Assembly (NCBI RefSeq): GCF_900221005.1
Contig: NZ_OBQI01000001.1
Location: forward strand, 186,001 to 250,000
Source: Blastococcus aggregatus
GTDB lineage: Bacteria; Actinomycetota; Actinomycetes; Mycobacteriales; Geodermatophilaceae
Reading direction: 5' to 3'
Length of the DNA stretch: 64,000 nt
This document shows, piece by piece, positions 36,600 through 37,492 of the stretch (position 1 is the first letter of the stretch; each line of letters begins with the position of its first letter). The notes under the pieces were generated by a model, which searched no databases, was not told the origin of the DNA, and saw only the letters and a list, made by a program, of their open reading frames with translations. The position numbers and the translations under genes were made by a program.

Positions 36600-36878
36600 T
36601 CAGCAGCCGCCTGCGACGGCCGGGAGGACCGTCACCGAGTCGCCGTCCTTCAGCGGGGTGTCCAGCGCGCCGGTGAAGCGCACGTCCTCGTCGTTGACGT
36701 AGACGTTGACGAAGCGGTGCAGCTTGCCCTCCTCGGTGACGAGGCGGCTCTTCAGGCCCGAGTGCTGCGCGTCGAGGTCGTCGATGAGCGCCGAGAGGGT
36801 GGCGCCGGTGCCCTGGACGGTCTTGTTGCCGCCGGTGTGGGTGCGCAGGATGGTGGGGATCCGGACCTCGATGGCCAT
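36600..36878 (-). CDS. cysO: CysO sulfur-carrier protein with C-terminal Gly-Gly-Cys
   Basis: 92 residues, ubiquitin-like beta-grasp (MoaD/ThiS family). Matches M. tuberculosis CysO closely ([50 protein letters not shown]). The mycobacterial protein ends in Gly-Gly; here one more codon, TGC (36603-36605), adds a terminal Cys before TGA. The Gly-Gly carboxylate is therefore masked until the Cys is removed, presumably by the JAMM protease encoded upstream. GAGGAG lies 10 nt before the ATG. Confidence 0.93.
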
Positions 36879-37006
36879 GGCGTGCGTTCTCCTCGGGGGT
36901 TCAGCTGATCGGGGGCACGCTGCGCGAGGGCAGCGAACTGGTGCGTCTAGCCGGGCCAACGCCCGGCCGCCGTGCGGGATTCCGCGTGGGCGGGGAGGTC
37001 CACCGA

Positions 37007-37492
37007 TCAGTCGTAGACGACGGTGGTCGGCGAGTGGCCGAAGAGGTAGGACTCGACGATCTCGACCTCCTCCTCGTTCACCTCGCCGTCGACGATCCGG
37101 AAGCTGCGGAACTCGACGTCGTCGCCGGCCAGCCCCGTCTGCTTCTCGTGGTGCCGGGTGGAGACCAGCACGTAGTGGGTGCGCGGATCGGCGGCCGGAC
37201 CGGAGGCGTAGCCGACGTCGGTGCGCGACGGGTAGGCCTCGGTCGCGGTGTGCGAGTGGTAGACGACGACCGGCCACTCGTCGCGGTCGTCCATGTCCCG
37301 GTACAGCCGCAGCAGGTCGGCGGAGTCGAACTCGTAGAACGTCGGCGACCGCGCGGCGTTGAGCATCGGGACGAAGCGCTCCGGGCGCTCGGTGCCCTCG
37401 GGCCCGGCGACGACGCCACAGGCCTCGTCCGGGTGGTCTTCCCGGGCGTGGGCCACGATGGCGTCGTAGGTCGCGCGGTCGATGCGCAGCAC
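37007..37492 (-). CDS. mec: JAMM-family metalloprotease Mec (CysO-cysteine hydrolase)
   Basis: 161 residues, Mov34/MPN/PAD-1 fold. JAMM zinc motif YHSHTATEAYPSRTD (HxH...SxxD), upstream Glu in DEACGVVAGPE. In M. tuberculosis Mec+ releases cysteine from the CysO-Cys adduct. Here it could also remove the encoded terminal Cys of CysO. 128 bp separate it from cysO. Confidence 0.92.
   Translation of the reverse strand: MLRIDRATYDAIVAHAREDHPDEACGVVAGPEGTERPERFVPMLNAARSPTFYEFDSADLLRLYRDMDDRDEWPVVVYHSHTATEAYPSRTDVGYASGPAADPRTHYVLVSTRHHEKQTGLAGDDVEFRSFRIVDGEVNEEEVEIVESYLFGHSPTTVVYD

What the first reader, a model, noticed from the sequence alone, without database searches (positions are those of the whole stretch)
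36600..37492. CysO sulfur carrier is encoded with a C-terminal Cys after Gly-Gly, next to its own JAMM protease
Sequence: codons GCA GGC GGC TGC TGA end the gene, so the protein finishes Ala-Gly-Gly-Cys. Known: mycobacterial CysO ends in Gly-Gly, is thiocarboxylated, receives O-phosphoserine-derived alanine via CysM to give CysO-Cys, and Mec+ frees cysteine; Pseudomonas QbsE has extra residues after Gly-Gly that the JAMM protein QbsD removes. Inference: this CysO is born as the same chemical state Mec recognises, so Mec would both activate the carrier and release product, making the cycle self-priming and dependent on Mec from the first turn.
Basis: partly seen in the sequence, partly recalled or inferred. 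Interest (0 to 1): 0.72.

Follow-up and report, generated by a model that had tools for sequence, protein, structure and literature searches.

The report
Cysteine-capped sulfur carrier CysO
A small protein that carries sulfur for making cysteine is itself translated with a cysteine stuck on its business end, and relatives suggest that the neighbouring protease must clip it off before the protein can work; clipped 'caps' of this sort are known, but a cap kept strictly as cysteine, the pathway's own product, is new detail.

Summary
cysO (36600-36878, minus) ends Ala-Gly-Gly-Cys-stop and lies between mec and cysM. It is no sequencing error: of 107 CysO genes in the same family, 73 have Cys after Gly-Gly, 29 nothing, 5 other tails. 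The Cys codon is TGC in all 73 while the DNA after the stop diverges. Roughly 13 changes would be expected there under neutrality; none is seen. The cap was gained or lost repeatedly (14-15 changes), as a 3-base GCT slip at GGC-stop would allow.

Caps are common: 144 of 220 CysO read outside the family have one. Tails vary, but the first residue is Ala, Ser, Met, Cys or Gly in 133 of 143 (fusion left out), which fits a protease pocket for small or Cys-like residues: Mec.

The principle is in print: Streptomyces platensis has carriers capped with MV or C, and deleting the JAMM gene stops thioacid formation (PMC6006322). 'Mec uncaps CysO' is likely; 'self-priming' overstates it, because uncapping yields only carboxylate CysO, which still needs MoeZ. 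Cap and mec cannot be correlated: mec is beside all 107 family CysO genes.

The parts
36600..36878 (-). cysO, sulfur carrier of the ThiS/MoaD family, 92 aa, ends AGGC
36606..36611 (-). Gly-Gly codons (GGC GGC), the functional C-terminus in known CysO proteins
   Evidence: 3dwg_C and 4n6e_B matches end here
36603..36605 (-). TGC codon of the one-residue Cys cap; TGC in 73 of 73 Cys-capped family members
36600..36602 (-). TGA stop; DNA beyond it diverges between relatives
37007..37492 (-). mec, JAMM/Prok-JAB metalloprotease, 161 aa, the likely uncapping enzyme
37217..37258 (-). JAMM motif HSHTATEAYPSRTD (HxHx7SxxD) in Mec
   Evidence: motif found in 105 of 105 family and 147 of 147 other Mec sequences longer than 100 aa
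35603..36553 (-). cysM, O-phosphoserine-type cysteine synthase

Best explanation
CysO is made as a pro-protein whose Gly-Gly end is blocked by one encoded Cys. Mec, the JAMM protease encoded just upstream, removes that Cys with the same reaction that releases product cysteine from the CysO-Cys adduct. MoeZ can then adenylate and thiocarboxylate the exposed Gly, CysM adds the O-phosphoserine-derived carbon skeleton, and Mec frees cysteine again. Shown here: gene order, intact JAMM motif, family-wide retention of Cys or nothing in the crown of the family, and the restricted first residue of caps in other lineages. Inferred: that Mec does the cutting, that the capped form cannot be activated, and that the restriction reflects the S1' pocket of Mec.
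For: mec is seen beside 79 of 80 named relatives (the other is at a contig end) and cysM beside 80 of 80; mec beside 106 and cysM beside 106 of 107 family loci, the misses at contig ends. In the same genome only the CysO beside mec is capped; the three other ThiS-family carriers found end in GG. A MoeZ-like protein with ThiF and rhodanese domains is present. Published: JAMM gene ptmS1 and MoeZ-type ptmS4 are both needed for thioacid formation attributed to capped carriers PtmS2 (MV) and PtmS3 (C) (PMC6006322, section 7). The Cys codon is unchanged in 73 species although 4-fold sites in the uniformly Cys-capped clades (64 of the 73) changed 6.42 times each in sum. Capped pairs in three other families mostly differ in tail at like divergence, pairs inside this family never. 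The first cap residue is A, S, M, C or G in 133 of 143 capped CysO outside the family, against 302 of 584 at the following ten positions; after clustering at 90% identity 88 of 97 against 28 of 81 at the second position, at 80% 33 of 42 against 13 of 38. One step from a stop codon would give 42% of these five residues and neither Ala nor Met.
Against: No cleavage was shown here. Relatives without the cap keep mec, so uncapping is not Mec's only use and the cap is dispensable. The residue rule is about small residues: Ala and Ser far outnumber Cys. It is weaker in lineages with Mec under 50% identical (11 of 17, against 122 of 126 elsewhere). The five-residue set was chosen after seeing the data, and the loci were mostly the best-scoring, not a random sample. 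The neutral expectation uses 4-fold sites and ignores mutation bias. Loci L336 (contig end), L338, L339 and L344 have cysM but no mec in the stretch fetched.
Confidence: 0.75

Rival explanations
1. Neutral slippage relic: the Cys is a harmless result of a 3-base GCT duplication at GGC-stop, kept only because Mec removes anything there.
For: All eight one-residue Cys caps outside the family read GGC-TGC-stop, as such a duplication gives, and so do 72 of 73 in the family; the cap comes and goes on the tree; other families tolerate many tails.
Against: No missense change in 73 capped species where about 13 would be expected, rough P 3e-6. In three other families at like or slightly larger 4-fold distance tails do drift: 11 kinds among 16, 8 among 13, 9 among 19 capped.
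Confidence: 0.15
2. The Cys stays on part of the CysO pool and does something itself, such as redox or thiol-disulfide gating of CysO activation.
For: Retention of Cys and not Ser or Ala in the crown of the family; moeZ, mec, cysO and cysM are said to be induced by oxidative stress in mycobacteria (PMC11361707, passages).
Against: Gly-Gly must be free for adenylation in known carriers (recalled); caps elsewhere mostly lack thiols; uncapped close relatives exist.
Confidence: 0.07
3. The constraint is on the nucleic acid (TGCTGA as termination or coupling context) and not on the residue.
For: All six bases TGCTGA are invariant in 73 sequences.
Against: Uncapped relatives have no TGC before their TGA; the distance to cysM varies from 38 to 100 bases in capped loci; the bias at the same place in other families is at amino-acid level and uses other codons.
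Confidence: 0.03

Closest known systems
Capped sulfur carriers PtmS2 (GG-MV) and PtmS3 (GG-C) with JAMM PtmS1, Streptomyces platensis (PMC6006322; section 7 read whole, other passages)
   Same: Residues after Gly-Gly, JAMM gene beside one of the capped carriers, single-Cys cap on PtmS3; JAMM knockout blocks thioacid formation.
   Different: In the section read, the carrier clustered with the JAMM gene ends MV and the Cys-capped one is not described as clustered. Of four unlinked copies that I read in family f5 (probably Streptomyces, inferred) two end in C and two in GG (L343, L346; L347, L348). Here Cys caps the CysO of the cysteine pathway, next to mec and cysM, and is retained across much of a family.
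QbsE and QbsD of Pseudomonas thioquinolobactin synthesis (recalled; PMC1855785 not held; QbsD named in PMC6006322)
   Same: JAMM-type protein exposes the Gly-Gly end of a capped carrier.
   Different: Different pathway, two-residue tail (recalled).
Mycobacterial CysO-CysM-Mec cysteine route (PMC3227635, passages)
   Same: Same three genes, close sequence match.
   Different: Mycobacterial CysO carries its thiocarboxylate on the last Gly of a GG motif; no cap is mentioned in the passages seen.
Ubiquitin-type precursors with C-terminal tails (recalled)
   Same: Tail after Gly-Gly must be cut before activation.
   Different: Here the tail residue equals the amino acid that the pathway makes, and one protease may do both cuts.

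Membership tests
CysO sulfur carrier of the cysteine pathway | ThiS/MoaD beta-grasp domain | tested here: met
   PF02597 67.9 bits; 3dwg_C 118 bits
CysO sulfur carrier of the cysteine pathway | Linked mec and cysM | tested here: met
CysO sulfur carrier of the cysteine pathway | Translated C-terminus is Gly-Gly | tested here: not met
   One Cys follows; I treat it as a pro-form because 29 relatives in the family end in the first GG
CysO sulfur carrier of the cysteine pathway | Thiocarboxylation by MoeZ and use by CysM | not testable with these tools
   MoeZ-like protein with rhodanese domain present in the genome
Capped sulfur carriers (PtmS2/PtmS3, QbsE) | Residues after Gly-Gly | tested here: met
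Capped sulfur carriers (PtmS2/PtmS3, QbsE) | JAMM protease gene in the cluster | tested here: met
Capped sulfur carriers (PtmS2/PtmS3, QbsE) | Cap removal required for use | not testable with these tools
   Inferred from PMC6006322
Mec, JAMM/MPN+ metalloprotease | Prok-JAB domain with HxHx7SxxD | tested here: met

The most novel reading that the evidence does not exclude
Actinobacterial CysO is often a pro-protein whose propeptide mimics the pathway's product: the Mec pocket that reads Cys in the CysO-Cys adduct dictates that the first residue of any encoded cap be Cys or small and Cys-like (Ser, Ala, Met, Gly). In the crown of this family (Geodermatophilaceae by the named relatives) the code is exact, so the newborn carrier is chemically the same molecule as the last intermediate of the cycle, and a single protease step both matures the carrier and releases product, giving one control point over de novo cysteine.
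Probability: 0.4. Interest if true: 0.65.

Novelty: new variant of a known kind. Interest (0 to 1): 0.5.

Why it matters
If right, a natural record of a JAMM protease's substrate specificity is written in many genomes as the residue after Gly-Gly, which makes Mec's specificity directly testable. It would also show how a biosynthetic protease and a maturation protease can be the same enzyme. In this genome no CysK or CysE model scored over its cut-off while a cystathionine beta-synthase did, so de novo cysteine may hang on this one cut; other routes were not searched for. Work that trims or ignores tails after GG would miss it.

Tried and rejected
Searches were first run with CysO one base out of frame and gave no CysO hit; the right frame was used. 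One search used a badly designed DNA pattern (it excluded Val before LPAVAGG, so even the window's own gene was missed); its count (2 of 355) is not used. The idea that the TGC codon is a sequencing error is rejected. The proposed score of GG versus GGC against mec presence is uninformative, as mec is always there in the family. Long open frames over CysO in deep lineages were looked at as possible CysO-CysM fusions; 20 loci were fetched and none was a fusion to CysM after GG; only L217 is, and the other two genomes of its family do not share it. A reverse-CysM idea (the encoded Cys supplies the first thiocarboxylate sulfur) was considered and put aside as chemically unlikely; nothing here tests it. 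No structure prediction was run. Searches for print on caps. I opened three papers (PMC3227635, PMC6006322, PMC11361707); the other hits were seen as listings only. Sasaki 2014 and Godert 2007 were not held.

Full report
What is there. On the minus strand the window holds mec (37007-37492), cysO (36600-36878) and cysM (35603-36553), then glutamate racemase, with DUF2017 and ClpS genes upstream. CysO is 92 residues and ends LPAVAGGC; the codons are GCA GGC GGC TGC TGA. It is a ThiS-family protein whose best solved relatives are 4n6e_B and 3dwg_C (M. tuberculosis CysO, name recalled); both alignments stop at the second Gly. Mec has an intact JAMM motif.

Same genome. Of four ThiS-family carriers found, only this CysO is capped; the others end SVAGG, TAGG and FAGG. 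One MoeZ-like protein with ThiF and rhodanese domains is present. No CysK or CysE model reached its cut-off; the top CysK match is a cystathionine beta-synthase and another is a cysteine desulfhydrase. So CysM with CysO may be the main de novo route; other routes were not searched for.

Same family. 108 of 112 family genomes gave a match; for one of these (G036) the only match was about 50% identical and taken as the paralogue, so 107 CysO genes were read. Tails after the first Gly-Gly: Cys 73, none 29, S..KR 3, tandem LPAVAGG repeats 2. mec was found beside 106 at the threshold used, and a piece of it beside the last, L104, at a contig end. All 73 Cys codons are TGC; the DNA becomes variable right after the stop. 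On a tree of cysO, mec and cysM the tail state changes 14 times, or 15 on an IQ-TREE quick tree. Holding the 26 crown uncapped rows, or the 73 capped rows, as one clade is rejected (AU p 1.6e-6 and 2.9e-5). Several branches in the mixed part are weakly supported, the crown was marked off after a tree was seen, and the tree is of the operon itself, so the exact number is soft.

Selection. Inside the eight clades of two or more species that are uniformly Cys-capped (64 of 73 species), 4-fold degenerate sites changed 6.42 times per site in sum by parsimony, so two free positions of the Cys codon should have changed about 13 times; none did (rough P 3e-6). Parsimony undercounts and codon bias slows 4-fold sites, which makes the figure conservative; mutation bias could shift it either way. 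As a control, three other families at like or slightly larger 4-fold distance in cysM show drifting tails: f93 11 kinds among 16, f5 8 among 13, f8 9 among 19 capped (the loci of each family that I had fetched, assigned). Pair by pair, capped pairs of the own family always share the tail (2556 of 2556 pairs, all Cys), those of f93 in 7 of 120, f8 12 of 120, f5 15 of 78; in f5 the closest pairs share it in 11 of 20. Pairs are not independent.

Wider survey. Of 80 named relatives, 31 end in GG (one of them, L022, after a repeated LPAVAGG) and 15 in GGC, the rest in other tails (the 15 are 13 of Blastococcus, Modestobacter and Geodermatophilus, plus Nocardioides sp. zg-DK7169 and Gordonia sp. 'Campus'). 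Genomes drawn evenly from the phylum (163 of 396 matched) and class (305 of 394 matched) gave 156 loci that I read, mostly the best-scoring, so not a random sample, and 20 more chosen for long open frames. Together, 361 of 363 loci were parsed (L044 had no tail motif, one frame ran off its stretch); 352 had mec or cysM nearby; 327 were distinct; 220 of these lie outside the own family: 76 uncapped, 143 with tails, 1 fused to CysM. Tails run from one residue to about fifty; 20 named loci of Actinoplanes, Micromonospora and kin share a hydrophobic A[LF]GFAAAAA tail.

A rule for caps. The first residue after Gly-Gly is A 66, S 37, M 14, C 9, G 7, R 4, E 3 and V, H, T 1 each: 133 of 143 in five small or Cys-like kinds, with no Leu, Ile, Phe, Trp, Tyr, Pro, Asp, Asn, Gln or Lys. 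The following ten positions give 302 of 584. Clustering at 90, 85 and 80% CysO identity keeps the contrast with the second position: 88/97 v 28/81, 63/72 v 22/67, 33/42 v 13/38. The set of five was picked after seeing the counts. The rule holds in 122 of 126 where Mec is at least 50% identical or not seen, but only 11 of 17 where Mec is more distant. Stop-codon loss in one step would give 42% of these residues and no Ala or Met, and only 60 of 143 observed residues are reachable that way. The simplest reading is a protease pocket that fits Cys and other small residues. Against a strictly Cys-shaped pocket, Ala and Ser are commoner than Cys.

Why Cys recurs. A tandem duplication of GCT in G-GCT-GA gives GGC TGC TGA, which is a Cys cap with the stop kept. 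All eight one-residue Cys caps outside the family read GGC TGC and then TGA or TAG; in the family 72 of 73 have GGC before TGC, one GGT. So mutation offers Cys often; selection in the crown of this family then keeps Cys or nothing.

Known work. PMC6006322 (section 7 whole, other passages) reports in Streptomyces platensis two capped carriers, PtmS2 with MV and PtmS3 with C, a JAMM gene ptmS1 clustered with ptmS2, and loss of thioacid products when ptmS1 or the MoaZ homologue ptmS4 is deleted but not when ptmS2 is; the caps were removed by cloning for the in vitro work. So capped carriers, a single-Cys cap and a JAMM requirement are in print. In family f5 (probably Streptomyces, inferred) the mec-linked CysO ends MA, MV, MS, SK, AV, AR or longer, while of four unlinked copies two end in C and two in GG, in line with that paper. 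In seven searches of an open-licence library I saw no listing that pointed to work on caps of CysO of the cysteine pathway, on a first-residue rule or on Cys retention in this family; I opened three papers only, and Sasaki 2014 and Godert 2007 were not held.

Verdict. Observation confirmed; Mec as uncapping enzyme likely; the Cys looks to be under selection in this family; 'self-priming' is too strong. The finding is a variant of a known kind with a sharp, cheap test.

Noticed in passing
L217:577-1788 (minus), genome G132: CysO runs straight into CysM in one open frame (GG-AAHDSILDAIGNTP...), with a Mec gene beside it; PF02597 and PF00291 both match. Not shared by the other two genomes of its family, so it may be a real ubiquitin-style polyprotein or an assembly error.
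   Followed up: partly
L022/L192, L196, L235, L249, L283, L287, L335 (tail regions): Some tails end again in GG, several through repeats of LPAVAGG or EVAGG, so the carrier may have a second usable Gly-Gly end.
   Followed up: no
capped CysO outside the family, set: Tails of two or more residues end in Arg in 51 of 118 cases; AR is the commonest two-residue cap (14 cases).
   Followed up: no
L088:163-2801 (own genome, C11 about 169.9-172.5 kb): A 711-aa frame with E2-like and ThiF domains next to a second JAB protein; PADLOC E1-E2 and JAB models match, which resembles a ubiquitin-like defence pair and not the CysO pathway.
   Followed up: partly
window 35487-35602 versus L003:5297-6046: In a relative (L003) a BKACE-type gene (PF05853) sits between cysM and glutamate racemase; in the window there is no room for it.
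   Followed up: partly
L344, L338, L339: CysO with cysM but no mec within about 1.3 kb, tails MR or MA; whether mec lies elsewhere was not checked.
   Followed up: no
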